The position numbers and the translations under genes were made by a program. A DNA stretch of 64,000 nucleotides from Clostridia bacterium (lineage in GTDB: Bacteria > Bacillota > Clostridia > Christensenellales > Aristaeellaceae): NCBI GenBank assembly GCA_017541105.1, contig JAFXZS010000001.1, forward strand, positions 62,001 through 126,000, written 5' to 3'. The notes under the pieces were generated by a model, which saw only the letters and a list, made by a program, of their open reading frames with translations, was not told the origin of the DNA and ran no database searches. This document shows positions 18,178 through 47,749 of this stretch, piece after piece (the stretch's first letter is position 1; every line of letters begins with the position of its first letter).

Positions 18178-19944
18178 TTACGCGAACCACTTCCGGATAT
18201 TTGCCTCGCGCTCCTCGGGCGTTTCACAGGGCTTGGGTTTCTGGCCGTTTTTCCGCTTGTAGAGCATGGCATCCAGCGCTTCCGGTTTGTGGAACAGATA
18301 GCCCTGTGCCAGTTCACATCCGCTGTCCCTTAAAAACTGCCTTTGTTCTTCCGTCTCCATGCCCTCCGCCAGCGTGTGAATTCCCAGTTCCCTGGCCACG
18401 CCGATCATCGCTTTGATGATCCGGCGGTTTGCTCCGTTGTGTTCATCCAGATGGCGGAGCAGATCCATATCAAATTTGATCAGGTCGAAATCAAACCGGC
18501 TGAACATACTGAGGGATGAATACCCGCTTCCGAAATCATCAAGCCAAAGCCAATGCCCGTTTTTTCTTAAGGACTGAAGCTGCTCGCGAAAGCGGTCTGT
18601 ACCGGTAACGATATCCTGCTCGGTAATCTCAATAATGAGGTAACTCTTATCCACATACTGACTGACTCCGTAACGGTTGTACAGGGCATCGATTTCTGCC
18701 GGAATATCCACATAGTCAAAATCCTGCGCGGCGAAATTAATGGAAACAGGAAGAAGATGAAACCCGTTTTCCACACGGACCCGGATCTCTCTGCAAACCT
18801 GCTCCACCATATAAAGATCCAGCTTGTACAGAAGATGGTACCGCGTGAGAACCGGAATAAACTCTCCGGGAGGAATGATGCCGCGCACCGGGTCGATCCA
18901 GCGGGCCAATGCTTCCAGAGCAGCCCCTTTGTTGGAGTCAATCCGGGAGATGCACTGATAATACACCTTGATCCAGCCTTCCTCCAGCGCACGGCTGAAG
19001 TTCTCCAGAATGTACCGCTGATTCCAGTAGGGGTCATCATCTCCATTGGAGTAGAATTTGACCTCCTTATTCAGATCATCCCGGATCAGTTTAACCGCCT
19101 GTTTTGCCAGGTCGATGGCTTCCGCTGTTACGGTTCCCTCATCATACAGGCTGATTCCTGCCTGAATACCGTATGTGCTTCCGTAGGCGCGTTTACGGAT
19201 GCTCTCATTTGCGGCGGTGATTTTTTCCGACAGCTCCTTCTGCCCCGGGAAGGAATCGATAATGATAAAATGGTCCTCGGCTCCGCGCATCACGAGGCCA
19301 TGCGGGAAAGCTTTTTTCAGCTCGTCCGCAATGATGCACAGCAGCTCGTTTCCATGGGAAAAACCGTACTGGTTGTTGTAGAACTGCATGGAATGCGTAT
19401 CCGTATAGATCAGGACAGGCTGCCGGTTGTCAGCCCGGATCAGATTCACCCGTTCATCCGCGAACTGGATCAGGAAATTAATGTTCGGCAATCCTGTCAA
19501 AGGATCCGAGTAAAAGTGATCCTGCTGGAACAAACCGTATCGGTCCGCGACCTGTTTGACTTCCTTCGACCATTTTTTCAGATCCAGGTAAATGACCAGG
19601 ATCAGTTCATTCCCGTCATCCATGGGCCACCAGAAGGCAACGGAATGGACATAATGGTAAGTATTGTCAACATTCCTGACCCGGTAAACGACATCGTAAT
19701 TGGACTGCTTGTTCCAGAAGGCCCGGACGGCCTGGGATATTTTGCCGACATCTTCCGGGTGAATACGGTCGAATTTGCTCAAATGCTGTTCTTTCATCAT
19801 CTTTTCCCTGTCAATGCCCAACAGCCTGCAAAAACCATCGGAGACCAGGAGCGGAACGTTCTGCCCGTCGACATTCTGAAAGAAAGAGAGAGGCAGCGAA
19901 AGCTGTTCCAGGGCTTTTCTCGCCATATCAGGAAACTGATACAT
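18178..19944 (-). CDS. PAS-GGDEF-EAL cyclic-di-GMP signalling protein (degenerate GGDEF)
   Basis: A 588-residue protein with a PAS-like sensor (about residues 15-130), a GGDEF domain (about 145-300) and an EAL phosphodiesterase domain (about 320-565). The GGDEF signature is replaced by RGAEDHF near residue 220, so cyclase activity is unlikely. The EAL domain keeps EALARW, IIEITEQD, LDDFGSGYSSL and LAEGMETEEQ, so it is probably an active c-di-GMP phosphodiesterase. It is soluble, with no membrane segments. A consensus promoter lies just upstream. Confidence 0.9.
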   Translation of the reverse strand: MYQFPDMARKALEQLSLPLSFFQNVDGQNVPLLVSDGFCRLLGIDREKMMKEQHLSKFDRIHPEDVGKISQAVRAFWNKQSNYDVVYRVRNVDNTYHYVHSVAFWWPMDDGNELILVIYLDLKKWSKEVKQVADRYGLFQQDHFYSDPLTGLPNINFLIQFADERVNLIRADNRQPVLIYTDTHSMQFYNNQYGFSHGNELLCIIADELKKAFPHGLVMRGAEDHFIIIDSFPGQKELSEKITAANESIRKRAYGSTYGIQAGISLYDEGTVTAEAIDLAKQAVKLIRDDLNKEVKFYSNGDDDPYWNQRYILENFSRALEEGWIKVYYQCISRIDSNKGAALEALARWIDPVRGIIPPGEFIPVLTRYHLLYKLDLYMVEQVCREIRVRVENGFHLLPVSINFAAQDFDYVDIPAEIDALYNRYGVSQYVDKSYLIIEITEQDIVTGTDRFREQLQSLRKNGHWLWLDDFGSGYSSLSMFSRFDFDLIKFDMDLLRHLDEHNGANRRIIKAMIGVARELGIHTLAEGMETEEQRQFLRDSGCELAQGYLFHKPEALDAMLYKRKNGQKPKPCETPEEREANIRKWFA

Positions 19945-32673: not shown

Positions 32674-32702
32674 GTGACAGAAGTCTAAAACCGTTGTATA
32701 AT
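32674..32702 (+). promoter_or_regulatory. Probable promoter for the LytTR regulator and downstream operon
   Basis: GTGACA (32674-32679) and TATAAT (32697-32702) with a 17-bp spacer. The remaining 32575-32893 interval is AT-rich with no gene. It gives a leader of about 185 bases before the regulator. A second TTGACA at 32655 has no well-placed -10. Confidence 0.6.
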
Positions 32703-32893
32703 CTTTAAATAAGTTACCAAAATGGCATCGCCGTTCAGGTTGTTCTTCAGAACTTCATGTTCGAACGCTTTCTGGAATGTTTATCCCGATCAGAATACAA
32801 CAGAAATTCGTAATCAAAGGCGGAATGCTGGTAGACCAAACGGCAGAAAACTGAAGGAGAATGATGCCAGTCGGCGAGAGGAAAAGAGCAGAC

Positions 32894-33709
32894 ATGAACA
32901 TAGCTTTTTTTGAAAAGAACGAGCAGAGCTGGATCAAACTGAAAGAGTGGCTTTGCGAATACACGATCCGTAAGGATATGGACTTCTCTGTTTTACGCTT
33001 TTACCGCAAGGATGCGGCAGAGGTATTATTTAAATACGCAATAGGCATCAGCTTTGCTTTTATTTCGCTGGATCATGAGGAGAGCATGAAAATCGGCAAG
33101 GCTTTGGCCAGGCTGAATCCTCATTGTTATATTTGCTATTACGCTCAGAAGCCATGTGAGTTTCAGCCGTTTTTACATACCCGTCCGTTCGATTTTTACT
33201 TCGGGATCCGTTATCAAAACGATATGGATACTGTCATGGATGCGATGCTGTCAGAATACATTCAGTCAAGCGGTACTTTTTTGTATGAAACAAGAAGGAG
33301 CTTTTTATATTATCCCATTAAAAATATCGCCTATTTTCAAAGTGATTTGAAATATGTTCATGTCATTGAGACGAACAGAATCCCAAACGAAATGCAGGAA
33401 CAGGAGAATACGCATCGTCTTTATGCCCGATTGAGCGATATAGAAGCCGAATTGGAAAAACAGAAGACCGCATGGTGTTTTGTGCGAATCCACAAGAGCT
33501 ATCTTGTGAATCAATACCATATTGCCAGCGTTGACAAGCAAAACCACTCGGTTCAGCTTACTAACGACGAGATACTGCCGATATCCGCCTCTTTTTACAA
33601 TGAAGCCATTGGAAAGATCAGGAGTTTTAGAGCGCCTGTGATGCAGGAGAATCCTGATTCTGCTGTTTCGCACATCAATTATAACCAAATCAATTCCTGC
33701 TTAGAATAA
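32894..33709 (+). CDS. LytTR-type transcriptional regulator with atypical receiver-like N-terminus
   Basis: A 271-residue protein. The C-terminal ~120 residues are a LytTR DNA-binding domain (SFLYYPIKNIAYFQSDLKYVHV, LYARLSDIEAELEKQKTAWCFVRIHKSYLVN). The N-terminal ~120 residues align loosely with a response-regulator receiver (MNIAFFEKNEQSW, FAFISLDHEESMK, CYICYYAQKP), but the phosphoacceptor position reads ISLD and I am not sure it is phosphorylated. I took the start at 32894 over the in-frame ATG at 32861 because it begins the receiver-like strand. It is first in the AT-rich gene set and probably regulates it. Confidence 0.82.
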   Translation: MNIAFFEKNEQSWIKLKEWLCEYTIRKDMDFSVLRFYRKDAAEVLFKYAIGISFAFISLDHEESMKIGKALARLNPHCYICYYAQKPCEFQPFLHTRPFDFYFGIRYQNDMDTVMDAMLSEYIQSSGTFLYETRRSFLYYPIKNIAYFQSDLKYVHVIETNRIPNEMQEQENTHRLYARLSDIEAELEKQKTAWCFVRIHKSYLVNQYHIASVDKQNHSVQLTNDEILPISASFYNEAIGKIRSFRAPVMQENPDSAVSHINYNQINSCLE

Positions 33710-33754
33710 ATAAGTAGCATAATGCGTGAAGAACAGTACAGAGGAGGATTCCAT

Positions 33755-36466
33755 ATGTTGAAAGATATATTGAATATGCTTAGCAGAAACGAACTCAGCC
33801 TGGATGACCAGCACATTCCGATGAATATAAACGTTCCGGACGATTTTTACCAGTCACTGCTGGCGCAGCTTCTGGAACGAGACTACCTTTGCGGCACATC
33901 AGAAATGAAGTTCATCAATCTCTATGCGAAAAACCCAGGGACCGTCCCCCTGCGCAGACCGCAGATCCATTGGATGCAGATCACCCGGCTGCCGGTTCAT
34001 CCCAATGAAAAAGAGGACTATGACCTTCTCTCCCGCTGGCAGGGCGTATTGTCAAGCATTCATGCCTGGGGGTATAGGTTGTATTTCCTGCTTTTGAGAA
34101 ATGAAGGAAAAACAAAACTCTTCCTGGGTACGGCATCAGCCAATCAGAATATCACTGGCAATGACGCCATTCAGCAATTACGGCAAGCCACCTTCGGCTC
34201 TATGCCCGGAATGGGGCTTCAGGTGCTCGACGCAGGGGAGAAGGTTCTGAATGAGATTCATACACCGCTTCAGAGTATGGACAGCATCGGAGCGGTTACC
34301 GGGATTCCGTCATTCCAGGAGAACCAGAAAAAAGGGCTCCTTCAGACATTGGATCAACTGGCGTTTGGCATTCGGGACGCCCACGGAGAAGAAAAGAACT
34401 ATGCAATGCTGGTGATCGCCGATCCCATCAACGATGAAGAAATCACGGAAATCATCTCTTGCCATCGCAGACTGAGCAGCCAGATCCACTCGGCGGTAAA
34501 AATGACTGTGAACACATCGGATTCAAAGCAGGAATCCTTTGATCCTTTGGCGAGAAAAAAGGCGGGAGCCAATCTTCTTGGGACAGTTCTCGGCGGAATT
34601 GGCGGAATCTTATTGGGCAATCCTCAGGTTGGGGCGCTGATCGGCGGCAGTATCGCCAATACAGTTACATCAGACATCAGTCGGCCGAAAAGCGTCAGCA
34701 GCAGCTCTGGCCTCAGCACCGAATACCTCGACAAGTTTGCCGAATATGCGGAATCTGCTACAGAACATCATATCAAGCGATTGAATGACGGCAGAAATTT
34801 TGGCTTCTGGAATACGGGAGTTTATGTTCTTGGGAATCTGCCTGTCGATGTGAAAACTGTTACCGGGATGCTGCGCTCCATCTATTCCGGAGAAGAGACC
34901 TATTATGAACCGATTCGTCTTCATCTGTTCCAGACTGACTCCAATGCCCTTTCAATCGTACGAAACAATTTTGACCTGCTGCCCATGCTGGACGCCAGAA
35001 TTGTTAAGCCCAAAGAGGGGTTTACCTATGCCCAGAGCCAGTGGCATCTGTTTGGCAAGAATTATCAGTATCTCAGTACCCCGCTCTCCACGAAAGAACT
35101 GAGCCTTGCCACCTCCCTGCCCCGGCGTGATGTTCCGGGCCTCCGTTTTGTGAAGACCGCAGTACGTTTTGCAAACAACCCGGCAGAGGTTCCTGACGAG
35201 AAGAGCAAGATCCGCTTGGGCAGCATCGTGGATACAGGCATTATCCAAGGGACCACCTACGATATCGACGTCAATTCTCTGGTGCGTCACGCGCTTATTA
35301 CAGGTATCACCGGCAGCGGCAAGTCCACTACCTGTAAGCGCTTGCTGGGCAAGGCAATGAAGCGGAGTATCCCCGTCATGGTCATTGAACCTGCAAAGGA
35401 TGACTATGTGCGCTGGGCAATTGCTCAGAACCGTCACCTTCCTGCGGAAAAGCGTTTCAAAATCTATATGCCCGGCCTGGCTGAATTTGAAGGTTATCCG
35501 CTTGAACAGTTGAAGCTGAATCTATTTGAACCGGCTCACGCAAAGGATGCGCCGGTCGATCTGCTTCAGCACAGCGAAACGGCGGCCACGCTGCTGAATG
35601 CCTGCTTGCCGTCCGAGGAGGTTGTCCCAATCCTGATTGAAGAAACGATCTATAACACGATTTCCGATTTTGCGAAGGATAATGACAGAGATTTTGATGA
35701 CGGACTTGTAGCCCCCCTGACAGCCTATCCAAAGGTAGAGTACCTCATAGGACAGGCAGAAACCCTCATGCGACACAAAACGTACGAGGATCGGGTTCGG
35801 GAGAATATGAAGGAAATACTGATAACTCGCTTTTCATCTCTGACTCGGGGAATGAGGGGAAAAATTCTGAATGTCAAAAAATCAACGGATTTTGCCGAAC
35901 TGTTTTCTTCCAACGTCATCATCAATATCAGCAAGCTGTCAGGCTCCAAGGACAAGGCGCTGATTATGTCCCTGCTCATGCAGGCGCTGTACGAATACCG
36001 TGTTTCGTGTTATACCTATGATCGGAGTTACAGGGAGAAAGCGCAGAAGAATCAGCTTTTGCACCTTACGCTGATTGAAGAAGCGCATAATGTGCTGCTG
36101 AAGCCTGCTGATCACCAGAGCAGCGGAAGCCCCCAGCGCGCAGTGGCTGATTTGTTTGGAAATATGCTGTCCGAGGTTCGGGGCTACGGTCAGGGGCTGG
36201 TGGTCGTGGATCAGGTTCCCACCCGTCTGATCGACGATGTGATCAAGAACACAAACTACAAAATCGTGCATCGGATTACCGCTCCGGACGATCAGACGAT
36301 CATGGCCTCCTGCATGGCGTTCCGGGACGATCAGAAGTATATTATCCCCGCACTGGAGAAAGGCTATGCGATCATTTGCGGCGACGATGACGACGCAGCT
36401 GCCTGGGTAAAAATTCCGATGGCCGGATCCGAGGAGGAGCATGCGCTGGATATCGAGGAAAGCTGA
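33755..36466 (+). CDS. HerA-like (DUF87/FtsK-superfamily) ATPase with N-terminal glycine-zipper segment
   Basis: A 903-residue P-loop ATPase of the HerA/VirB4 branch. Walker A is GITGSGKSTT at about residues 517-526, followed by VMVIEPAKDDY typical of HerA-type helicases. Walker B is LTLIEEAHNVL near residue 772, and then LVVVDQVPTRLIDDVIKNTNYKIVHR, the usual sensor region. The N-terminal half is unlike HerA; around residues 270-305 is a hydrophobic glycine-rich stretch (GTVLGGIGGILLGNPQVGAL), which could insert in or associate with a membrane. HerA partners (NurA, DUF4297, Sir2) are not adjacent. It has an AGGAGG site. Role inferred: hexameric DNA or protein translocase. Confidence 0.85.
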   Translation: MLKDILNMLSRNELSLDDQHIPMNINVPDDFYQSLLAQLLERDYLCGTSEMKFINLYAKNPGTVPLRRPQIHWMQITRLPVHPNEKEDYDLLSRWQGVLSSIHAWGYRLYFLLLRNEGKTKLFLGTASANQNITGNDAIQQLRQATFGSMPGMGLQVLDAGEKVLNEIHTPLQSMDSIGAVTGIPSFQENQKKGLLQTLDQLAFGIRDAHGEEKNYAMLVIADPINDEEITEIISCHRRLSSQIHSAVKMTVNTSDSKQESFDPLARKKAGANLLGTVLGGIGGILLGNPQVGALIGGSIANTVTSDISRPKSVSSSSGLSTEYLDKFAEYAESATEHHIKRLNDGRNFGFWNTGVYVLGNLPVDVKTVTGMLRSIYSGEETYYEPIRLHLFQTDSNALSIVRNNFDLLPMLDARIVKPKEGFTYAQSQWHLFGKNYQYLSTPLSTKELSLATSLPRRDVPGLRFVKTAVRFANNPAEVPDEKSKIRLGSIVDTGIIQGTTYDIDVNSLVRHALITGITGSGKSTTCKRLLGKAMKRSIPVMVIEPAKDDYVRWAIAQNRHLPAEKRFKIYMPGLAEFEGYPLEQLKLNLFEPAHAKDAPVDLLQHSETAATLLNACLPSEEVVPILIEETIYNTISDFAKDNDRDFDDGLVAPLTAYPKVEYLIGQAETLMRHKTYEDRVRENMKEILITRFSSLTRGMRGKILNVKKSTDFAELFSSNVIINISKLSGSKDKALIMSLLMQALYEYRVSCYTYDRSYREKAQKNQLLHLTLIEEAHNVLLKPADHQSSGSPQRAVADLFGNMLSEVRGYGQGLVVVDQVPTRLIDDVIKNTNYKIVHRITAPDDQTIMASCMAFRDDQKYIIPALEKGYAIICGDDDDAAAWVKIPMAGSEEEHALDIEES

Positions 36467-36542
36467 CTGCTGAATGGGGAAGGATTCATACGTCGAGCCT
36501 GGCAAAAAACAAACCATGAAGGAATGAAAGGGGCATCTGGCA

Positions 36543-37304
36543 ATGAATGAACTTTTAGGCGGAATGGAACTGAATGAAATGGGCGAAAACTCCGCAACGC
36601 GCGAGATCGCGAGTCAGCTTCAGGCGTATCAATCAAGACTATTTGAAGCAATGAAGGCGGGAGATGCGGAAACCGCCAATTACTTCCGCGGCCAAATCGA
36701 AAAGCTGAATGAAGAAATGGGTGCCAGCCAAGGAACAGCGGCAGGTGTCGGAGCAGAAAATGCCAGCGGTATTCCTGGATATCATCCGGAACAATTGAAG
36801 GCAGCGCAAGACAGGTTGACAAACGCAAAGAGGGAGTTGAGCGCGCTGGAGCATCAGCGCAAGGGAAGGACTGATGATCCAGCGCTGGAAAAACTGATCA
36901 GCAAAAAAGCGCAGGAAGTACAAAAATTGGAGCGGGAATATAAAAGGACACAGTATTATAACCGCCCCCGGCTCCGAGGAGAGGATGAAGGAATCGACAC
37001 CCCACAAGGCGCGAAAGAGGCGGTGAAGCAGGGTGCCCGCCAGGGAAGCAAGGGCCAGGAGATCAGCTTTGGCGGTGGAGCCGGCGTAACGGAGATTATT
37101 CACAGCCGTGGTTCTATGAAGATCAGCGAAGCAAATAGCAAAAGATCAACCGCCTCCAGTTATGAATCAAGCGCACGCAGAGCGCGCAATGAGGGCAATT
37201 TCAGCAAGGCATCAAGCTTGGAATCCACAGCAAGATCTTTGCGCAGCGAGGCAAACAAATTGGAAACGGAAGGAAAGAATCTAAGAGCGTATAAGCCCAA
37301 ATAA
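36543..37304 (+). CDS. Coiled-coil protein of unknown function
   Basis: A 253-residue hydrophilic protein. Residues ~80-125 form a heptad-rich coiled coil (EQLKAAQDRLTNAKRELSAL, LISKKAQEVQKLEREYKRT), with a second helical Ser/Ala/Arg-rich heptad region at about 195-245. Gly/Gln-rich linkers connect the two. No signal peptide, no membrane segment and no family recognised. It lies between the ATPase and the peptidase gene and may act as adaptor or scaffold. Confidence 0.75.
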   Translation: MNELLGGMELNEMGENSATREIASQLQAYQSRLFEAMKAGDAETANYFRGQIEKLNEEMGASQGTAAGVGAENASGIPGYHPEQLKAAQDRLTNAKRELSALEHQRKGRTDDPALEKLISKKAQEVQKLEREYKRTQYYNRPRLRGEDEGIDTPQGAKEAVKQGARQGSKGQEISFGGGAGVTEIIHSRGSMKISEANSKRSTASSYESSARRARNEGNFSKASSLESTARSLRSEANKLETEGKNLRAYKPK

Positions 37305-37336
37305 TCTTCATGATTACACATTGAGGAGCATCAAGC

Positions 37337-38014
37337 ATGGGAATTGAATTCTTTTCTGAAGGATCCGAAAGCCTAAAAGCAGAGCGCTACGAGGGATTGA
37401 GGGAGCTGGAACCCGGTGTTTCTTTGGAGCACGTCGGCCCCCGGCAAGCGTTTAGACCGGAGCAGGAAAACTTCGAGCTCAGCGCAGGAACGCCGGAGAA
37501 GGATGCAGAGCACTGGCACCGTCAGGGAGAGGCGTACTCCTGTGCCGTAGTCTGTCAGGAATTTGTGGCGGAACAGCTTCTGGATCGTGACTTTTCAGAG
37601 CAGAGCCTGATCGAATTCGCCAAAGAAAGAGGCTGGTACGATCCTGAATCCGGAACCACAGCCAATGATGTCGGAAAGATATTGGAAAGTCTGGGTATCC
37701 ATGTGGAGCGGGCAAAGGACCTGAACCTGCGTGATTTGGCTCAGGAACTGGATTCCGGGGCAAAACTGATCTGCGGTGTAAACAGCGCGATTATGGCGAA
37801 ACCGGAGCTTGCAGAGGTGCCGGGTTTCAATATCAATCACGCAGTTGAGGTCATCGGAATCAAACAGACACCGTCGGATACGTGGGTAATTCTGAATGAT
37901 CCCGGCCTTGAAGGCGGCCGCGGAGTCCAGATTCGGGCATCCACCTTCCTGAAAGCGTGGAAGCCCGGAAACAACTATACTGTGATTGCAAGGAAAGGAG
38001 GCATCAACGCCTGA
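37337..38014 (+). CDS. Papain/C39-like cysteine peptidase
   Basis: A 225-residue protein whose C-terminal 165 residues resemble the bacterial C39-like (papain-fold) peptidases. The likely catalytic Cys is 69 (GEAYSCAVVCQ, with Gln63 as possible oxyanion residue), the His is 168 (NINHAVEVIGI) and the third residue is Asn187/Asp188 (VILNDPG). The N-terminal ~55 residues are charged and may be a propeptide or docking segment. It has no signal peptide, so it is not an ordinary C39 bacteriocin-exporter protease. Its stop overlaps the next start (TGATG). Confidence 0.78.
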   Translation: MGIEFFSEGSESLKAERYEGLRELEPGVSLEHVGPRQAFRPEQENFELSAGTPEKDAEHWHRQGEAYSCAVVCQEFVAEQLLDRDFSEQSLIEFAKERGWYDPESGTTANDVGKILESLGIHVERAKDLNLRDLAQELDSGAKLICGVNSAIMAKPELAEVPGFNINHAVEVIGIKQTPSDTWVILNDPGLEGGRGVQIRASTFLKAWKPGNNYTVIARKGGINA

Positions 38015-38475
38015 TGGACGCATTGGAGCTTGTTAAGGAGCTGTCGCAGCGCGATATCGTTGCGTCAGAGCTGCCGATAGGCCTTCAGTTAGGGCTGCCA
38101 TGGCTTGAACAGCGAAACGGCCGGCTCTGTATCCGCTTTTTGCCTCACCGGGAGGAATACGCCGAGGATCGCATCTGTTATTATGCTCCTCAGTTTGAAA
38201 TCGCGTGGGTCTGGCCCTTTACACACCTGGCCTCTTTCCGCAACCTGACCTTGGAGAACGAGGTGGACGTATCGCAGCCGCTGTGCACTGTCAGCGCGGA
38301 TCGTCTTCTCTCTGTTGGAAAGCATGGGATGGAAGAGTTATATCAAGCGTGCTCGAAAACCCTGACCATTCGGGAAGACACCGGCACGATTACAAGTGCT
38401 TGGGTTCGCGCATACCAGAAGAAATACATGAGTCTGATCGAATCATTGGATCTGACAGAGCTGTACAACAGATAA
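38014..38475 (+). CDS. Small protein of unknown function, coupled to the peptidase
   Basis: A 153-residue soluble acidic protein starting within the peptidase stop. It contains a mixed beta region (GRLCIRFLPHREEYAEDRICYYAPQFEIAWVWPF) and a C-terminal helix. I do not recognise a family. Tight coupling to the cysteine peptidase suggests an inhibitor, immunity or substrate-docking partner, but this rests on context only. Confidence 0.7.
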   Translation: MDALELVKELSQRDIVASELPIGLQLGLPWLEQRNGRLCIRFLPHREEYAEDRICYYAPQFEIAWVWPFTHLASFRNLTLENEVDVSQPLCTVSADRLLSVGKHGMEELYQACSKTLTIREDTGTITSAWVRAYQKKYMSLIESLDLTELYNR

Positions 38476-38492
38476 CCGGGAGCGTGAGTATT

Positions 38493-40508
38493 ATGCCAGC
38501 AGAGAGAATTATAGGGGTGGACTTTGGCACCAGCACTTCGGTGATCCGGGTAAAACGGTACACAGAGAACGGTGCACCAATCGGGGAGCGATTTGAAACA
38601 AAGGAAGTCGTTTTCGGAGGCAAAGGCGGCATGGTGCCTACGTTGATCCAAAAAAAGATCGGTGATCCGAGTGTGGTGTACTTCGGCTACGAGGCGGAAC
38701 AGAAAAGGCGCAATCATACGCTTTACCAGGGGTTCAAGGTAGAGCTGGAAAGCCAGGACCCGGATCAGCGGGCCTTGGCCAGAATTTTGACCGCAGAATT
38801 CTATGGCTATCTGGCGAAACAATACAAATCGCAAAGCGATGGAGGCCATCTGGGAGAGGCAGACGACCGCGAACGTACCATCATCAGTTATCCGGTGAAG
38901 TGGAAAGATGAGACCAAGCAATTCGTGGTGGAAGCCGCAATAAAGGCCGGATTTCCGAGCGTGGAGGGAATGGACGAGGCGCAGGCGGCGATCCAGGCGG
39001 CGCTGGTGCAAAGCGAAGCACACCTGAAATCCATCGGGCTGCTGCGGGACGGCGTGCCTGTTACAATCCTGCTGATCGACATGGGAGCGGGGACAACGGA
39101 CCTGGTGCTGTGCAATTATACACCGGGGGATGCGGTCATGGAGACTTTGAACACCTGGCCGAGAGGCGAACAGGCGCTTTTCGGCGGGCGGGAATTGGAT
39201 CAGCTGCTGCAGGGGTTTTTCCGTCCGATGCTGTCTCCGGAGATCGCGGAAAGCATTTTCCAGCGCATAGGTGTGGAGAAATTCAAGGGATGGAAGGAAA
39301 CGGTTGTTTCTCCTGCGCTGCTTCGAAAGGCGCAAGTCGAGGATTTTGAGGCGTTGGACAGCTGCCTGGAACTTCTGGGCCAGGAGATTGGCGATTACCG
39401 CTTGGATAGAGCTGGATTTGAGACGCTCATGGAAGCGTATCTGAAACAGTTTCCGACCCTGATTAACGACTGCATTCGGGAATCGCCCGTAAAGGGGGAT
39501 GACGTGGATCTGGTAATCGTCACCGGCGGCCATAGTCAGTGGTATTTTGTGGACGATATACTCACTGGCAAAAGCAGCAGATTCGGAACGGTAAACCTTC
39601 CTAAAATCAAGGAAGCATCGAAACGATTGATTTCAATCGCGCGTCCCCAGGAGACGGTGGCTCTGGGCCTCGCGTTTCAGAAAACGCCGATCAGCACGTT
39701 GCCCAAGCCCGCGCAGAAAAAAGCTGTCAATTCAGCACAGGGCGAGCAGATAAGCATTGGAGATAAGAAACAGTTTCAGAAAACGCCAGTCAGCACGCTG
39801 CCTAAGCCCACGCAGAAAAAAGCCGTCAATTCGGCACAGGGAGAACAGACAAGCAGTGGAGATAAGGAGCATACTGAATTTGAAGAAGCGATGACGGCGT
39901 ATCGGGAAGCCTACATGAAAGGCGTGGGTGTCGATCCTCAAGCGGAGAGAAAGGCGGTGAAATTGTTCCGAAAGCTCGCGAATCAGGGACATTCTGAAGC
40001 GCAGTTTTATCTTGGCGAATGCTATAAAGCAGGCCTGGGCGTAAAAGAAAATTACGAAGAAGCAGAGCATTGGTACGGTCTGGCCGCAAAACAGGGAGAT
40101 AAAGCTGCCAGGAAAGCCTTGGAACGTGTGCGGCAAAAGGCAAAACAGCAGAAAGAGCAGCATGAGAGCGTGCGGAACATGATAGCGTCGTTGAACCAGA
40201 AAGGCGCGGATGCACAATCATATGCAAAAATTCATATTGTTCGAAGAAAGCGGTTTGTCGGAAGCGGAAGGGATCAATTTATCCGTATTGACAAAGACAG
40301 CACGCAAACTTACAGGATCTCAAATGGGGACGATTATATGATCACAGTCTCTGTTGGTACTCATTGTGTGGAATTGTGTGACGCCACCTATTGGGGGAAT
40401 AATCAGAATTGGACCAATCCAGCCTATTTTCCTGATTTGCAATTCTCTGAAGGGGATGTTTTGTTAATTGATCTGACGGGCGACGTGAAAGTCGTATGGG
40501 AATCATGA
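38493..40508 (+). CDS. Hsp70-like ATPase with tandem repeats, Sel1 repeats and a C-terminal beta domain
   Basis: A 671-residue protein. Residues 1-390 form an actin/Hsp70-fold ATPase (phosphate 1 GVDFGTSTSVIRVK, phosphate 2 LLIDMGAGTTDLVL near residue 190, adenosine motif VIVTGGHSQWYFV near 341). A substrate-binding domain of DnaK type is missing. It continues with two 33-residue tandem repeats (395-460), Sel1/TPR-like repeats (about 475-560: AQFYLGECYKAGLGVKENYE) and a C-terminal ~90-residue domain that looks beta-rich. Such Hsp70 variants without a DnaK C-terminus are likely dedicated to one client. A GrpE-like gene follows directly. Confidence 0.85.
   Translation: MPAERIIGVDFGTSTSVIRVKRYTENGAPIGERFETKEVVFGGKGGMVPTLIQKKIGDPSVVYFGYEAEQKRRNHTLYQGFKVELESQDPDQRALARILTAEFYGYLAKQYKSQSDGGHLGEADDRERTIISYPVKWKDETKQFVVEAAIKAGFPSVEGMDEAQAAIQAALVQSEAHLKSIGLLRDGVPVTILLIDMGAGTTDLVLCNYTPGDAVMETLNTWPRGEQALFGGRELDQLLQGFFRPMLSPEIAESIFQRIGVEKFKGWKETVVSPALLRKAQVEDFEALDSCLELLGQEIGDYRLDRAGFETLMEAYLKQFPTLINDCIRESPVKGDDVDLVIVTGGHSQWYFVDDILTGKSSRFGTVNLPKIKEASKRLISIARPQETVALGLAFQKTPISTLPKPAQKKAVNSAQGEQISIGDKKQFQKTPVSTLPKPTQKKAVNSAQGEQTSSGDKEHTEFEEAMTAYREAYMKGVGVDPQAERKAVKLFRKLANQGHSEAQFYLGECYKAGLGVKENYEEAEHWYGLAAKQGDKAARKALERVRQKAKQQKEQHESVRNMIASLNQKGADAQSYAKIHIVRRKRFVGSGRDQFIRIDKDSTQTYRISNGDDYMITVSVGTHCVELCDATYWGNNQNWTNPAYFPDLQFSEGDVLLIDLTGDVKVVWES
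39675..39872 (+). repeat. Tandem 99-bp in-frame repeat (2 copies) inside the Hsp70-like gene
   Basis: Copies at 39675-39773 and 39774-39872 encode 33-residue units beginning FQKTP[IV]STLPKP and ending with a Gly-Asp-Lys segment, differing at a handful of positions. Copy number may vary between strains. They form a Lys/Gln/Ser-rich linker between ATPase and Sel1 domains. Confidence 0.9.
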
Positions 40509-40541
40509 ATGAATGCAAGTCAAACAAAGCAGGTGAATTCT

Positions 40542-41090
40542 ATGAAACAGGAAGCAAGTTTAGTCAGGCAGCTTTTAGTGCGGTTGATCTGCCGGCTGCG
40601 CCGAAGTACGAAGCTGTTTCCGCTTCGTCAAAAAGACGTTTTTGTCCGCGCCTGGCGCGATACGCTTCGTACCAATGCCAAGCTTTTCAACGGCCTTTAT
40701 GCCGGGCTGGTTCGCGTGGGGTCCGGGAACGCAAAAACGCCCCAGAAAGCGCTTAAGGAGTGGTATGATCGGACACGCTTCAAATGGGAAGACGGGGAAA
40801 TCACGAAGCTTTGTGAAAAGTCTCTGTGTCCCGTGATTGAGCGTTCAAACCCCGACGAATGCGCATCATGGGCAGGTTTGCTGCTAAAAGCGGCAGAAGC
40901 GGCGGGGCTGCAAAGAGAGGAAGAAAAGCATCTGGTCCTGAACGAACAAAACGCAAATTCCTATACGGAATGGAACGGCAAGGAGCTGTACGTGGGCGAT
41001 ACGGTTGAAGTCATGCTTCCCGCCTGGTATCAAAACGGAGAGCTGATCGAGCAGGGCATCTGCACCCTGCTTACCAGCGGAGAAGAGTAA
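40542..41090 (+). CDS. GrpE-like protein (possible dedicated nucleotide exchange factor)
   Basis: A 182-residue protein. The N-terminal half is basic and helical, and the C-terminal ~45 residues (GKELYVGDTVEVMLPAWYQN, then LIEQGICTLL) resemble the beta-wing of GrpE, which ends in a similar VVEV-x(8)-RPA-V-V pattern. Its position right after the Hsp70-like gene fits an exchange-factor role. Similarity is weak and partial, so this is an inference. ATG 40542 was chosen for its AGGTGA site; an in-frame ATG at 40509 adds 11 residues. Confidence 0.55.
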   Translation: MKQEASLVRQLLVRLICRLRRSTKLFPLRQKDVFVRAWRDTLRTNAKLFNGLYAGLVRVGSGNAKTPQKALKEWYDRTRFKWEDGEITKLCEKSLCPVIERSNPDECASWAGLLLKAAEAAGLQREEEKHLVLNEQNANSYTEWNGKELYVGDTVEVMLPAWYQNGELIEQGICTLLTSGEE

Positions 41091-41241
41091 ATCGCGGCGG
41101 AGAAAACCATTGGCATAAGCTTTAGAATATCTAAGGATACGGGAAAAACGCCGGCGAGATGAATCTGCATGACAGCGGACAGAGGGAAAACCTAATAGAG
41201 ATTGGACAAGAAGCACCTGCAGAGGGGATGGAGGTGTGAAG

Positions 41242-42414
41242 ATGCCGTTCCTATCGGACTATGAACAGCGTACAGTATGGAAATATGAGCCGATTCACGG
41301 TTCCTTCCATACACATGAGGGACTCGGGAGAAAAGTTAATCCCGACGGAAGCTATGCTCCATTCCATGGCAGCACAGTGGCGTTCCGACCCGGAAAAAAG
41401 TGCTTCCGAATCATTCGGCTGATGATGAGCGTTCTTTATCAGAAGCTGGACGGAACGGGAATGCTGGCGATCCCTCTTCCTGACGATGCGATTCATATGA
41501 CACTGCATGACTTGGTTTCTCCTGAGATGTGTTCATCTTACCCGGCGGAAGCGTATGACCCTGAAGTTGTGCAGAGCATTGACAGGGCGGCTGGCATCGT
41601 TGAAGATATCCGAAAAGAATATGCGGGAAGAAAGATCACCATGGTATCGGATCGGATTGTCAGCATGGTGGCCAAGTCTGTGGTATTGATGCTGCGTCCA
41701 CAGACAGAGGAAGATTTTGAACTGCTGATGGAGCTGTATCGGCGGTTCGACGAGATACAGAGTCTTCCTTATCCCTTGACGCCGCATATTACTCTTGCGT
41801 ATTTCAAGCCCGGCATGATCGATGGAGACACACTCGGAGAAGCGGTTGAATTTGCGCAGATAGATCCGGAAAAAGCGCCGGTATTTGCGTTTTTTCCGGA
41901 GGCGCTGACTGCGCAGAGCTTCCTCGATATGCAGTCGTATCTGGATATCCCCGCGCGGATTTGCTTTTGCTGCGACGGAGGTCTGAACCGCAGTGTCATG
42001 GCGGCTCAGATTCTCAATTATCTTGCGCGTGAAAGACACCTTCCGGTGATCGGAGAAGCAAGAGCCGCCTATCCCAGCACACAAGGATGGCCTGTACGGG
42101 AGCAGGTCTGGAACACGCTGGAAAGCCATGGTATTCGTCCCGACAGGACATATTCGTCGGCGAAATACCTACAGGATGATGAGGCTGCATTATTCTCATC
42201 GCTCGTTGGAATCTCAGGCGGAGCAATGGATCGGATTGCACGGCTGGGCCTGCCGGAAGAAAGAGTATATCATGCGAGCCGGTTTTTCTTTGGCGTTCGG
42301 GATCCGGAGTACGGCGAAATAACCCACGAACAGGCTTTTGCGGATTTATACTGCAGGGCGGAAAAATACCTGGATGACTTTGAAACCGTCTACAGAAAGC
42401 ATGTGAGGAAGTGA
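41242..42414 (+). CDS. 2H-phosphoesterase-like / low-molecular-weight tyrosine phosphatase-like fusion
   Basis: A 390-residue protein with two recognisable parts. The N-terminal ~225 residues contain two H-x-T motifs, HMTLH at residues 85-89 and HITLA at 182-186, with the spacing of 2H phosphoesterases (LigT/CPDase-like), which open 2',3'-cyclic phosphates or ADP-ribose cyclic phosphates. The C-terminal ~160 residues contain the phosphatase P-loop C-x5-R (CDGGLNRS, Cys244 and Arg250), as in low-molecular-weight phosphotyrosine phosphatases or arsenate reductases. I know no common family with this fusion. A GGAGG site precedes ATG 41242. Confidence 0.75.
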   Translation: MPFLSDYEQRTVWKYEPIHGSFHTHEGLGRKVNPDGSYAPFHGSTVAFRPGKKCFRIIRLMMSVLYQKLDGTGMLAIPLPDDAIHMTLHDLVSPEMCSSYPAEAYDPEVVQSIDRAAGIVEDIRKEYAGRKITMVSDRIVSMVAKSVVLMLRPQTEEDFELLMELYRRFDEIQSLPYPLTPHITLAYFKPGMIDGDTLGEAVEFAQIDPEKAPVFAFFPEALTAQSFLDMQSYLDIPARICFCCDGGLNRSVMAAQILNYLARERHLPVIGEARAAYPSTQGWPVREQVWNTLESHGIRPDRTYSSAKYLQDDEAALFSSLVGISGGAMDRIARLGLPEERVYHASRFFFGVRDPEYGEITHEQAFADLYCRAEKYLDDFETVYRKHVRK

Positions 42415-42418
42415 CGAT

Positions 42419-43636
42419 ATGGATATGGAAGCGTTCCTGAAAAGGCAGGAGGAGTTTAAACGGCAAGCGCTGGAGGCTGAAAAAGAACGCGCTGAAAGGC
42501 GCAGGGCAGAAAAACGGCCGTACCTCAATAAAATCATGGGCGGGCTGGTCGGAGGCGCAATCGGCGATGCCCTTGGCTATCCTGTGGAATTTTCATCCTG
42601 GAAAGAGATACAGAAGGAATACGGTTTCGAAGGGATACAGAAATACGATCTGGATTTTGAAACCGGTGCCGCAGTGTTTTCAGATGACACGCAGATGAGC
42701 CTGTTTACAGCGAACGGAATTCTGATCGGCGAAACGCATGGCCATCTGAAAGGAATCCAGGGGCCAATTGCCAATTACGTGCATACAGCCTATAAGGAAT
42801 GGCTCAGGACGCAGGAGTGGGGTTCTGATCCCCGGCAGGATCATCATTGCTGGCTGTATGAAATCCCGGATCTTCACTGTGACCGCGCGCCTGGCACAAC
42901 GTGCCTCTCTGCGCTGCGGTCAGGCAAAATGGGCAGCATTGACGCGCCGCTGAATTCCAGCAAAGGCTGCGGCGGCGTGATGCGCGTTGCCCCCCTTGCC
43001 TTGCATTATCAGCCGATATCCGACGCAGACCGCAGATTCCTTGACATGGACGGTGCTGAGATTGCGGCAATTACGCACGGGCATCCGCTTGGCTATATTC
43101 CTGCCGCCATTCTGACCCATATCATCAGCATCGGCGTATACGGCGATGGAACAAAGAGCATCCTGGCAGCCGTGGATGAAGCCTGGGCTGCGGCGAGAGA
43201 CATGTTTAAGGAAAAAGCCTCTGCCGCGGATCTGGACTGCATGGAATCGCTGATCACAAAGGCCAGGGCGCTTGCAGATGCGGAAGGCTCCGATGAAGAG
43301 CATATCAGGGCAATCGGTGAAGGCTGGTCAGGGGATGAGGCGCTTGCCATAGCCGTCTATTGCAGTCTGCGGTACGCTGATGATTTCAGCAAAGCCGTGA
43401 TTGCGGCTGTCAATCACAGCGGCGACAGCGATTCCACAGGAGCCATTACGGGGAACATACTCGGTTCCTGGCTTGGATATGACGCGATTGACGAAAAATG
43501 GAAAACGAATCTGGAGATGAAGGGCATTCTCCTGGAGATGGCGGAAGACCTTTGCTATGGCTGTGTAATGTACGAGGGCGAAAACTACGTGGATGAGGCC
43601 TGGGTCAGGAAGTACTGCGAGGGACACGCGGGATGA
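42419..43636 (+). CDS. ADP-ribosylglycohydrolase (DraG/ARH family)
   Basis: A 405-residue ADP-ribosyl hydrolase. Family motifs: GGAIGDALG (about 45-53), FSDDTQMSL with the Mg-binding DDT (about 88-95) and NHSGDSDSTGAITGNILG (from about residue 332) holding further metal-binding Asp residues. The N-terminal 35 residues are a charged helix not typical of the family. Its start is 4 bp after the 2H/phosphatase stop, so it is co-translated. It would remove ADP-ribose from a modified protein or nucleic acid, or cleave ADP-ribose derivatives. It ends the AT-rich gene set. Confidence 0.92.
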   Translation: MDMEAFLKRQEEFKRQALEAEKERAERRRAEKRPYLNKIMGGLVGGAIGDALGYPVEFSSWKEIQKEYGFEGIQKYDLDFETGAAVFSDDTQMSLFTANGILIGETHGHLKGIQGPIANYVHTAYKEWLRTQEWGSDPRQDHHCWLYEIPDLHCDRAPGTTCLSALRSGKMGSIDAPLNSSKGCGGVMRVAPLALHYQPISDADRRFLDMDGAEIAAITHGHPLGYIPAAILTHIISIGVYGDGTKSILAAVDEAWAAARDMFKEKASAADLDCMESLITKARALADAEGSDEEHIRAIGEGWSGDEALAIAVYCSLRYADDFSKAVIAAVNHSGDSDSTGAITGNILGSWLGYDAIDEKWKTNLEMKGILLEMAEDLCYGCVMYEGENYVDEAWVRKYCEGHAG

Positions 43637-46846: not shown

Positions 46847-47599
46847 CTATGAAGCCGGGCTTCCTTCCGTACCCAGACCGCTCAGAAGCTGAAAGAGCTC
46901 CGTGACATCCTCCCGGATCAGCAGGGAAGCCCGGCTGTCGGCGGGTGTCGGCTCCCGGTTGATGATGACCAGATTCTTTCCCCGGAAATCCTCCGTGAAG
47001 GAAGCGGCAGGCTCAACCGCCAGCGAAGTACCCGCTATGATCAGCGTATCCGCGTTTGTGATTTCCCTTCTGGCTCCGATGCATACATACTTTTCCAGCG
47101 GCTCCCCGTACAGCACAATATTCGGCCGGATCACGCCGCCGCAGTCACAGCGGGGAATGCCGGAGGAACGGAGAATCTTTTCCGGCGGGTAGGAAGCGTT
47201 GCATTCCATGCAATAGTTCTCATGCACATTCCCGTGAAGCTCATAAACCCGGATGTTTCCCGCCTGCTTATGCAGGCCATCTATATTCTGGGTGACAATT
47301 CCCCGCAGCTTATCGCGCTTCTCCAGCTCAAAAAGATACCGATGGACCGCGTTCGGAACCGCATCCGGATAAAGCATGTGCTTCCGGTAGAAGTCAAAGA
47401 ATTCTTCCGGATGCAGATAGAAGAAGCTTCTGCTCAGAATCATTTCCGGTGACAGGCCGTTTTCTTCCTTCGCGAACAAACCCGCCGAAGACCTGAAATC
47501 CGGGATTCCGCTTCCCGTGGAAACACCTGCCCCGCTGAAAAAGACGATCCTCCTGGACCGGCGGATGATTTCACCGAGCTGCTCCGCTTCTTTTTTCAT
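46847..47599 (-). CDS. cobB: Sir2-family NAD-dependent deacylase
   Basis: A 250-residue sirtuin. GAGVSTGSGIPDFRS binds NAD, TQNIDGLH is present, the catalytic His is at about residue 122 (ELHGN), and the zinc ligands are Cys130, Cys133, Cys151 and Cys153. It has the length and motifs of the class III/U bacterial CobB type, removing acetyl or acyl groups from lysines. Several in-frame Met codons lie upstream, and the start at 47599 is the one matching family length. Downstream of it lies a short gap with nothing obvious. Confidence 0.93.
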   Translation of the reverse strand: MKKEAEQLGEIIRRSRRIVFFSGAGVSTGSGIPDFRSSAGLFAKEENGLSPEMILSRSFFYLHPEEFFDFYRKHMLYPDAVPNAVHRYLFELEKRDKLRGIVTQNIDGLHKQAGNIRVYELHGNVHENYCMECNASYPPEKILRSSGIPRCDCGGVIRPNIVLYGEPLEKYVCIGARREITNADTLIIAGTSLAVEPAASFTEDFRGKNLVIINREPTPADSRASLLIREDVTELFQLLSGLGTEGSPAS

Positions 47600-47749
47600 T
47601 GTCAGCATCTCTCCGGCCTGCCATCCTTCGGGACGGGCATTCATTTCGCGCTGAATATACAATGAAAGGGTTCCCGTGTCAAGCGTATCGGGCCGGACAG
47701 GGATTCCGTGATCCGGCGCGCGCGGCAGAGGCATGCCGGCATTTTCCTG

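What the first reader, a model, noticed from the sequence alone, without database searches (positions are those of the whole stretch)
32894..43636. Candidate undescribed system: LytTR - HerA-like ATPase - coiled coil - C39-like peptidase - Hsp70/GrpE-like - 2H-PTP fusion - ADP-ribosylglycohydrolase
Nine genes in one direction with short gaps or overlaps combine a P-loop translocase, a papain-like peptidase, a specialised Hsp70 with a possible exchange factor, and two enzymes acting on ADP-ribose or cyclic phosphates. The set is more AT-rich than both flanks and starts next to a repeat cluster, which suggests gain by transfer. HerA ATPases and ADP-ribose-processing enzymes occur in known defence and stress systems, but I know of none with this mix. 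A working guess: ADP-ribosylation or RNA-end damage response in which the ATPase and Hsp70 recruit the peptidase. The window lacks an ADP-ribosyltransferase, which weakens that guess.
Basis: partly seen in the sequence, partly recalled or inferred. Interest (0 to 1): 0.85.

Follow-up and report, generated by a model that had tools for sequence, protein, structure and literature searches.

The report
Possible bacterial toxin-deployment gene module
Seven of the nine genes form a conserved bacterial set built around a DNA-pump-like ATPase whose distant relatives often sit beside known toxin and immunity genes, so the set is probably an undescribed way of holding and deploying a protein-cutting toxin; the last two genes are a separate ADP-ribose-processing pair.

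Summary
The nine genes are real but are two modules. Genes 1-7 recur: all 9 loci found with HerA at 45% identity or more carry the C39-like peptidase, a small gene after it and an Hsp70-like ATPase. Peptidase and small gene overlap by one base. Their divergence is coupled (r 0.95 over 7 loci; 0.94 given HerA; p 0.0026); the peptidase follows HerA weakly (0.41). The pair recurs, without HerA in the 18.6 kb read, on an Anabaena plasmid. More distant HerA relatives have a toxin domain over Pfam's cut-off in the following gene in 9 of 31 loci scanned (nucleases, ADP-ribosyltransferase); a SUKH or YezG-like immunity gene follows in 7 of those 9. Best reading: a toxin-immunity pair (peptidase, P0005) run by a HerA/Hsp70 machine, probably against other cells. 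Genes 8-9 occur elsewhere without the others, once beside KptA, NADAR and macro genes, and look like ADP-ribose-phosphate processing.

The parts
32674..32702 (+). promoter-like site GTGACA-17-TATAAT, 11 of 12, about 190 bases before the first gene
   Evidence: consensus match only, sites in the region are about as many as in shuffles (11 against 9.5)
32894..33709 (+). LytTR-type DNA-binding regulator (P0001)
   Evidence: Pfam LytTR E 2.4e-11; 34-36% relatives in 4 other loci
33755..36466 (+). HerA-like ATPase with a glycine-rich hydrophobic stretch at 270-288 and Walker A lysine K523 (P0002; the longer ORF starts at 33722)
36543..37304 (+). coiled-coil protein (P0003); no BLAST relative in the loci fetched; weak Ntox28 (bacterial toxin 28) match below cut-off
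   Evidence: Ntox28 E 0.0095, 16.5 bits against 25; small coiled-coil-like ORFs at similar places in 6 other loci, by eye
37337..38014 (+). C39-like papain-fold peptidase, predicted effector (P0004); Q63, C69, H168, N187/D188 conserved
   Evidence: invariant in 9 of 9; Pfam C39_2 E 2e-4, below cut-off
38014..38475 (+). small partner of the peptidase, predicted immunity protein or inhibitor (P0005); its start overlaps the peptidase stop by one base
38493..40508 (+). Hsp70-type ATPase domain with Sel1 repeats in place of the peptide-binding domain (P0006)
   Evidence: some relatives carry RCC1 or LRR_5 repeats instead
40509..41090 (+). conserved partner gene (P0007), N-terminal hydrophobic stretch in L044 and L046 by eye; GrpE likeness not supported
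   Evidence: 33-41% relatives in 5 other loci; no Pfam hit over cut-off
41236..42414 (+). 2H phosphoesterase - LMW phosphatase fusion (P0008): HMTL 87, HITL 184, CX5RS 246; second module
   Evidence: relatives in 29 of 300 family genomes, own included, 17 of them over both halves
42419..43636 (+). ADP-ribosylglycohydrolase (P0009): DDTQ 89, DSD 336; second module
   Evidence: Pfam E 9e-62; motifs

Best explanation
Genes 1-7 are a toxin-immunity module on a HerA-type machine. The papain-fold peptidase P0004 is the effector. P0005, translated from an overlapping start, is its cognate partner and most likely keeps it silent in the producing cell. The HerA-like ATPase, which has a glycine-rich hydrophobic stretch that could sit in the membrane, is the motor; the Hsp70-type ATPase, whose peptide-binding domain is replaced by a variable repeat domain, recognises effector or target; P0003 and P0007 are adaptors; the LytTR protein controls expression. 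The machine hands the peptidase out of the cell to competitors. Shown: gene order, conservation, conserved catalytic residues, co-divergence of the pair, near full-length kinship of the HerA with HerA proteins that stand before nuclease toxin genes and immunity genes. Inferred: that P0004 is toxic, that P0005 neutralises it, that the motor moves it, that the target is another cell, and the roles of P0001, P0003, P0006 and P0007. Genes 8-9 are an added ADP-ribose module: 2H opens ADP-ribose cyclic phosphate, the fused phosphatase removes the phosphate, the hydrolase removes ADP-ribose from macromolecules (inferred from families); it may protect against ADP-ribosylating effectors.
For: HerA, C39 and Hsp70 in 9 of 9 close loci, a small gene after C39 in 9 of 9 (third type, L027 and L028, by position and weak alignment only). 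C39-P0005 co-divergence r 0.95 over 7 loci, partial 0.94 given HerA, against 0.41 for C39-HerA and 0.78 for HerA-Hsp70: the pair changes as a unit on a stabler chassis. Pair found again at 38.7% (C39) and hhalign E 1e-10 (P0005) on an Anabaena plasmid, no HerA in the 18.6 kb read. L042 6401-7177: a C39-type leader (recognised by eye) in frame with a type-1 P0005, catalytic part missing, near a complete type-2 pair. HerA relatives align over 787 columns including much of the N-terminal half. The following gene has a toxin domain over Pfam's cut-off in 9 of 31 loci scanned, 6 of 9 in the clade that holds the dynamin-associated loci (tree); a SUKH or YezG-like gene follows in 7 of those 9. An ADP-ribosyltransferase fills the slot in S. 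clavuligerus. Hydrolase immunity to ADP-ribosylating toxins is documented (BAH, Tri1: passages of PMC11699363 and PMC10763514); P0009 matches the Tri1 model weakly (50.9 bits, cut-off 490). PF03747 within 20 kb of 3 of 7 close loci: p 2e-5, or 2 of 6 without the window, p 0.001 (the background, 64 matches in 61 genomes of the window's genus and order, is not matched to each locus).
Against: In 22 of 31 loci the gene scanned after HerA has no toxin domain over the cut-off; in 19 of these there was no toxin-like match worth counting. In the window's own HerA clade the peptidase never changes to another fold, only in type (9 of 9), so it may be a core part. P0005 has no Pfam hit and is not SUKH-like (hhalign probability 0.2%). 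No WXG/LXG or other export domain passed a cut-off in the nine proteins; signal peptides were not tested. The best NCBIfam model of the HerA after all is a DNA-translocating ATPase (CedD, E 1e-22, far below its cut-off). P0003, not P0004, has the weak match to a named toxin family. No fold could be predicted. Mantel tests rest on 7-9 loci.
Confidence: 0.45

Rival explanations
1. Same toxin-immunity pair, but used inward: the Hsp70 with its variable repeats (or HerA) senses phage or plasmid entry and frees the peptidase from P0005, which shuts down the infected cell.
For: Variable repeat domains on Hsp70 (RCC1, LRR_5, Sel1) look like sensors. The Anabaena pair sits with DO-GTPase, Hsp70 and dynamin genes, components of the conflict systems of PMC7159879 (passages read; dynamins are mine to add). 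PADLOC's HerA and mad8 (MADS) models match the HerA (E 3e-18 and 1e-12).
Against: No other PADLOC match in the nine proteins but a weak one of the LytTR protein (E 0.07). SUKH and YezG-like neighbours and colicin-type nucleases are typical of toxins aimed at other cells (PMC3482391, passages).
Confidence: 0.25
2. P0004 is not a toxin but the maturation or release peptidase of a HerA-driven export or assembly machine; P0005 is its cofactor, and the true substrates are P0003-like coiled-coil proteins or genes elsewhere.
For: C39 in 9 of 9 close loci, and a zincin-like gene (below cut-off) third after HerA in the cyanobacterial relatives: peptidases may be a fixed part of this branch. Weak Ntox28 match of P0003. 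C39 peptidases of ABC exporters cut leader peptides (recalled). PMC3482391 notes papain-like domains that act as releasing peptidases (passages).
Against: The pair occurs without HerA in the Anabaena stretch, diverges faster than the chassis, and has the place that nuclease plus SUKH have in relatives.
Confidence: 0.2
3. The HerA-like ATPase moves DNA, as other HerA proteins do, in a DNA uptake, transfer or plasmid-maintenance function; the toxin-type neighbours are addiction genes.
For: CedD (DNA-translocating ATPase) is its best NCBIfam model; solved HerA helicases are its best PDB relatives; many relatives are on plasmids.
Against: No nuclease, relaxase or DNA-uptake gene in the 9 close loci was recognised; the same place is filled by peptidases and an ADP-ribosyltransferase in relatives.
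Confidence: 0.05
4. One reading: a damage response in which ADP-ribose or RNA-end signals drive ATPase, Hsp70 and peptidase.
For: P0008-P0009 relatives lie beside KptA, NADAR and macro genes in L078; NADAR and ADPRG genes lie beside the module in L044 and L046.
Against: Complete ADPRG in 3 of 9 close loci, P0008 in 1 of 9; genes 8-9 exist without the HerA module in the neighbourhoods read.
Confidence: 0.05

Closest known systems
Polymorphic toxin systems (Zhang et al. 2012, PMC3482391, passages read), incl. Tox-PLC39 and SUKH immunity
   Same: 9 of 31 scanned HerA relatives are followed by colicin-DNase/WHH, LHH, non-specific endonuclease or ADP-ribosyltransferase domains, 7 of these then by SUKH or YezG-like genes; a C39-type peptidase is listed there as a toxin domain
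   Different: Motor is a HerA/DUF87 ATPase with Hsp70 or dynamin partners; the HerA passages of that paper concern only the T7SS ATPase; no recognised N-terminal trafficking domain
Type VII secretion system (EssC/YueA FtsK-HerA ATPase)
   Same: P-loop motor of the FtsK-HerA superfamily beside toxin genes
   Different: Different ATPase family (HerA/DUF87), no WXG or LXG hit among the nine proteins
DO-GTPase/GAP1 conflict systems with HSP70 and GrpE (Kaur et al. 2020, PMC7159879, passages read)
   Same: Hsp70-type ATPase without peptide-binding domain; the C39-P0005 pair occurs near a DO-GTPase in Anabaena sp. 90
   Different: No DO-GTPase hit in the window set; HerA is the core here; the one HerA mention in that text is in its reference list
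HerA-NurA, HerA-SIR2 and HerA-DUF4297 systems
   Same: HerA-like ATPase (PADLOC HerA model E 3e-18)
   Different: None of these partners among the nine proteins; N-terminal region shared with toxin-associated relatives
KptA / 2H / macro / NADAR ADP-ribose processing sets (PMC9503650, passages read)
   Same: P0008-P0009 relatives stand beside KptA, macro and NADAR genes in L078
   Different: Here the pair stands behind the HerA module; no KptA among the nine genes

Membership tests
Polymorphic toxin system | toxin domain swapped between relatives on a constant chassis | tested here: inconclusive
   across the HerA family in 9 of 31 loci, several folds; in the window's clade only C39, in three divergent types
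Polymorphic toxin system | cognate immunity gene next to the toxin | tested here: inconclusive
   P0005 adjacent, overlapping and co-diverging, but no family hit and not SUKH
Polymorphic toxin system | N-terminal trafficking domain on the toxin | tested here: not met
   no Pfam domain over cut-off in P0004 outside or inside the C39 region; signal peptides not tested
Polymorphic toxin system | toxicity and neutralisation | not testable with these tools
   needs expression tests
Type VII secretion | WXG100/LXG substrates and EssC-type ATPase | tested here: not met
   no such Pfam or NCBIfam hit in the nine proteins
HerA-partner antiphage systems | adjacent NurA, SIR2 or DUF4297 effector | tested here: not met
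   none among the nine proteins; a Sir2-like ORF by eye lies 3.2 kb further on, other strand
DO-GTPase/GAP1 conflict system | DO-GTPase and GAP1 genes | tested here: not met
   no such hit among the nine; DO-GTPase present in the Anabaena locus
Papain-fold C39-like peptidase | Gln-Cys-His-Asn/Asp catalytic set | tested here: met
   Q63, C69, H168, N187, D188 invariant in 9 of 9; Pfam score below cut-off
ADP-ribosylglycohydrolase | Pfam model over cut-off, acidic metal-site motifs | tested here: met
   209.7 bits against 26.2; DDTQ and DSD (their role is recalled)

The most novel reading that the evidence does not exclude
The HerA-like ATPase, with Hsp70 or paired dynamins, is the motor of an undescribed protein-delivery machine used in several bacterial phyla to put interchangeable toxins (peptidase, nuclease, ADP-ribosyltransferase) into other cells; the window holds a Hsp70-type, peptidase-armed version with an added ADP-ribose defence pair.
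Probability: 0.3. Interest if true: 0.93.

Novelty: new variant of a known kind. Interest (0 to 1): 0.75.

Why it matters
If right, a HerA-type ATPase family found in at least six bacterial phyla among the 19 plasmids read, mostly annotated 'ATP-binding protein' or 'DUF87', would be a toxin-handling motor rather than a DNA translocase, with versions on plasmids of Lactococcus, E. coli, Exiguobacterium, Streptomyces and cyanobacteria that can be tested at once. It would also suggest a function for Hsp70-type ATPases that carry variable repeats instead of a peptide-binding domain, and a candidate new immunity family (P0005).

Tried and rejected
Rejected or left open: P0005 as a SUKH protein (hhalign probability 0.2%); P0007 as GrpE; a repeat cluster at the start; an AbiEii-like remnant before the first gene, recognised from memory, gave no Pfam hit for the 31-residue piece tried; a clean empty insertion site in same-genus genomes, since the two flanking genes tried are not kept together (about 540 kb apart in G091). 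The viral-contig scan gave no relative of the HerA by tblastn; two short unannotated records listed as phage hold distant ones (not followed). At E 1e-60 the HerA profile finds the own genome and 2 others of 396 in the order, the own genome and 4 others of 398 drawn from the phylum. One E. coli genome of 5426 holds the E. coli version, so strain-level swapping could not be shown there. The Rhodococcus neighbour of a C39 gene and the small gene after the second C39-like gene in L031 are not P0005-like. A search of the own genome with PF05973 found nothing. P0006 and P0008 have no plasmid match. HerA trees place long branches uncertainly.

Rows dropped or not scanned: of 37 HerA rows outside the window's clade, 31 had a following gene scanned against Pfam (for L035, L040 and L056 the second gene, not the first; for L054 the first and third); L034, L038, L039, L041, L048 and L055 were not scanned. 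Following genes come from my ORF calls or from PLSDB tables, which are incomplete. Among the 22 without a domain over cut-off, 3 had weak toxin-like ones (L031 C39_2, L072 RelA_SpoT, L054 zincin); also seen and not counted: HepT-like E 0.005 in L050, an HExxH by eye in L036. L037 was left out of the tree. Of 42 plasmid records with a HerA hit I read 19; 19 of the other 23 are further S. clavuligerus and Lactococcus records. One search's gene caller put a wrong ORF over the HerA of L046; one search corrected it.

Literature: ten searches of the held library. Four returned no paper; none of the papers listed by the others (capped lists) was seen to describe HerA with dynamin or Hsp70 and toxin-immunity pairs. 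I read passages only, of PMC3482391, PMC7159879, PMC8195603, PMC9503650, PMC11699363 and PMC10763514. Most subscription papers and all bioRxiv preprints are missing from that library.
Full report
What is there. The window holds nine complete ORFs in one direction, 32894-43636. Gaps are short, the peptidase stop and the P0005 start overlap by one base, and GC is 0.510 against 0.583 and 0.588 in the flanks. Pfam supports LytTR, HerA/DUF87, Hsp70 with Sel1 repeats, LMWPc and ADP_ribosyl_GH; C39_2 and 2H score below cut-off, but the catalytic sets are intact: Q63, C69, H168 and N187/D188 in P0004 (invariant in 9 of 9 sequences), two HxTL motifs and a CX5RS in P0008 (motif meanings recalled). The coiled-coil protein P0003 has a weak match to the toxin family Ntox28, below cut-off. 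The reported repeat cluster was not found, and GrpE likeness of P0007 has no support.

The set is conserved. A scan of named genomes with the HerA gave six MAG loci at 57-67% identity, and 200 family genomes gave two more at 45-46%. Counting the window, 9 of 9 loci have HerA, a C39-like peptidase, a small gene after the peptidase, and an Hsp70-type ATPase; P0007 relatives are in 6 of 9, LytTR in 5 of 9, small coiled-coil-like ORFs in 7 of 9 (by eye), a complete ADPRG in 3 of 9 and a fragment in one, P0008 in 1 of 9. Contigs L042 and L047 end close behind the module. In L027 and L028 the Hsp70 is only 24% identical, and the small gene is matched by position and weak alignment. The HerA is rare: in the genus only the own genome of 45 reaches E 1e-30, and few of about 400 genomes each in order and phylum reach E 1e-60.

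Peptidase and P0005 are a pair. In the 9 loci they fall into three types, and peptidase type and P0005 type agree in each. Distances of the two correlate at 0.95 over the 7 close loci and 0.94 after HerA is partialled out (p 0.0026), while peptidase against HerA gives 0.41 and HerA against Hsp70 0.78; over all 9 loci the partial value is 0.835. HerA keeps at least 58% identity in the 7 loci where P0005 falls to 12%. In L042 a C39-type leader (by eye) runs in frame into a type-1 P0005, the catalytic part being absent, near a complete type-2 pair: it looks like a partner kept after its peptidase was lost. On plasmid pANA01 of Anabaena sp. 90 a peptidase 38.7% identical to P0004 is followed by a P0005 relative (hhalign E 1.1e-10, probability 97%), in a locus with Hsp70, DO-GTPase and two dynamin genes and, in the 18.6 kb read, no HerA.

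What HerA's relatives do. Plasmid searches found near full-length relatives in two cyanobacteria and more distant ones elsewhere; the 19 records read are from six phyla. Profile comparison aligns the window's HerA family with a second family (eight sequences, among them the dynamin-associated ones) over 787 columns, much of the N-terminal half included. A glycine-rich hydrophobic stretch 239-278 residues before the Walker A motif is the strongest hydrophobic window in 9 of 9 members of the window's clade and in 4 of 9 of the second clade. The following gene encodes a Pfam toxin domain over cut-off in 9 of 31 loci scanned: colicin-DNase/WHH (L030, L051, L059, L061, L062), LHH (L052, L060), Endonuclea_NS_2 (L032), ADPrib_exo_Tox (L067); a SUKH or YezG-like gene follows in 7 of these 9 (not in L059, which has DUF6985, nor L067). 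Below cut-off are a second C39-like gene (L031; hhalign against the window's family E 3e-5, probability 72%), RelA_SpoT (L072) and a zincin-like gene (L054, third gene). In the remaining 19 no toxin-like match was counted. In the tree the second clade (9 rows, dynamin genes seen in 4: L051, L059, L060, L061) has 6 with such domains of different folds; the window's clade is sister to the cyanobacterial pair (support 100/99). Two dynamin genes also stand before the HerA of L043, a close relative of the window locus. No matched control for toxin adjacency was run.

Hsp70. The ATPase domain is kept, but the part behind it changes from locus to locus: Sel1 in the window, RCC1 in L042, L043 and L047, LRR_5 in L044, none recognised in L045 and L046; L042 and L044 have two copies. 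This suits a recognition part, which is inference.

The ADP-ribose pair. P0008 relatives occur in 29 of 300 family genomes (own included), over both halves in 17. Of six neighbourhoods read, two hold a P0009 relative next to it: L077, and L078, where the order is KptA, NADAR, P0008, P0009, macro, NADAR; none of the six has a hit to P0001-P0007. KptA produces ADP-ribose 1'',2''-cyclic phosphate, on which 2H enzymes act (PMC9503650, passages); a fused phosphatase could then remove the phosphate. That P0008 does both steps is my inference. ADPRG lies near 3 of 7 close loci (2 of 6 without the window), more than a background of 64 matches in 61 genomes would give (p 2e-5 and 0.001), in two of them with NADAR and in one fused to a microbial PARG domain. 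Since an ADP-ribosyltransferase fills the effector place in S. clavuligerus and hydrolases serve as immunity to such toxins (BAH and Tri1; passages of PMC11699363 and PMC10763514), protection against such effectors is a likely reason for the association, but RNA-end repair is not excluded.

Verdict. Genes 1-7: a HerA/Hsp70 chassis with a C39-P0005 pair, best read as a toxin-immunity module (0.45 for outward deployment; 0.25 for inward, abortive use; 0.2 for a processing peptidase; 0.05 for DNA movement). Genes 8-9: a separate ADP-ribose module. None of toxicity, immunity, delivery or membrane insertion was shown. In ten searches of the held library I saw no description of this arrangement.

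Noticed in passing
L059, L060, L061, L051, L062: Module dynamin-dynamin-small-HerA-nuclease-small immunity-type gene on plasmids and in one genome (no dynamin seen in L062); on the plasmids annotated only as dynamin family, ATP-binding or DUF87 protein, HNH nuclease, SMI1/KNR4 or hypothetical.
   Followed up: partly
L067 5161-9418: S. clavuligerus plasmid: HerA-like ATPase followed by an ADP-ribosyltransferase exoenzyme-type gene and a small gene without Pfam hit.
   Followed up: partly
L078 3899-8955: Operon-like run KptA, NADAR, 2H-phosphatase fusion, ADPRG, macro, NADAR fused to a cytidylyltransferase-like domain: a candidate complete ADP-ribose-phosphate processing set.
   Followed up: partly
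L046 15551-17623: ADPRG domain behind a microbial PARG domain in one protein (690 aa).
   Followed up: no
L074 5902-12092: Rhodococcus plasmid C39 peptidase with a small gene that is not P0005-like and a dynamin gene about 3.5 kb on; similar C39 genes are listed on Prescottella plasmids.
   Followed up: partly
window 32717-32860: Piece that resembles (from memory) the start of an AbiEii-type nucleotidyltransferase, not in one open frame; no Pfam hit for the piece tried.
   Followed up: partly
window 46847-47734 (-): Sir2-like ORF (by eye) 3.2 kb behind the ADPRG gene; another Sir2-like ORF lies near the HerA of L038 (4693-5430).
   Followed up: no
window 18178-19944 (-): GGDEF/EAL-like ORF (by eye) in a local GC dip.
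   Followed up: no
L042 12356-16105, L044 15125-20028: Second Hsp70 copies and LRR-type genes beside the module: the Hsp70 part of the set seems to multiply and vary.
   Followed up: partly
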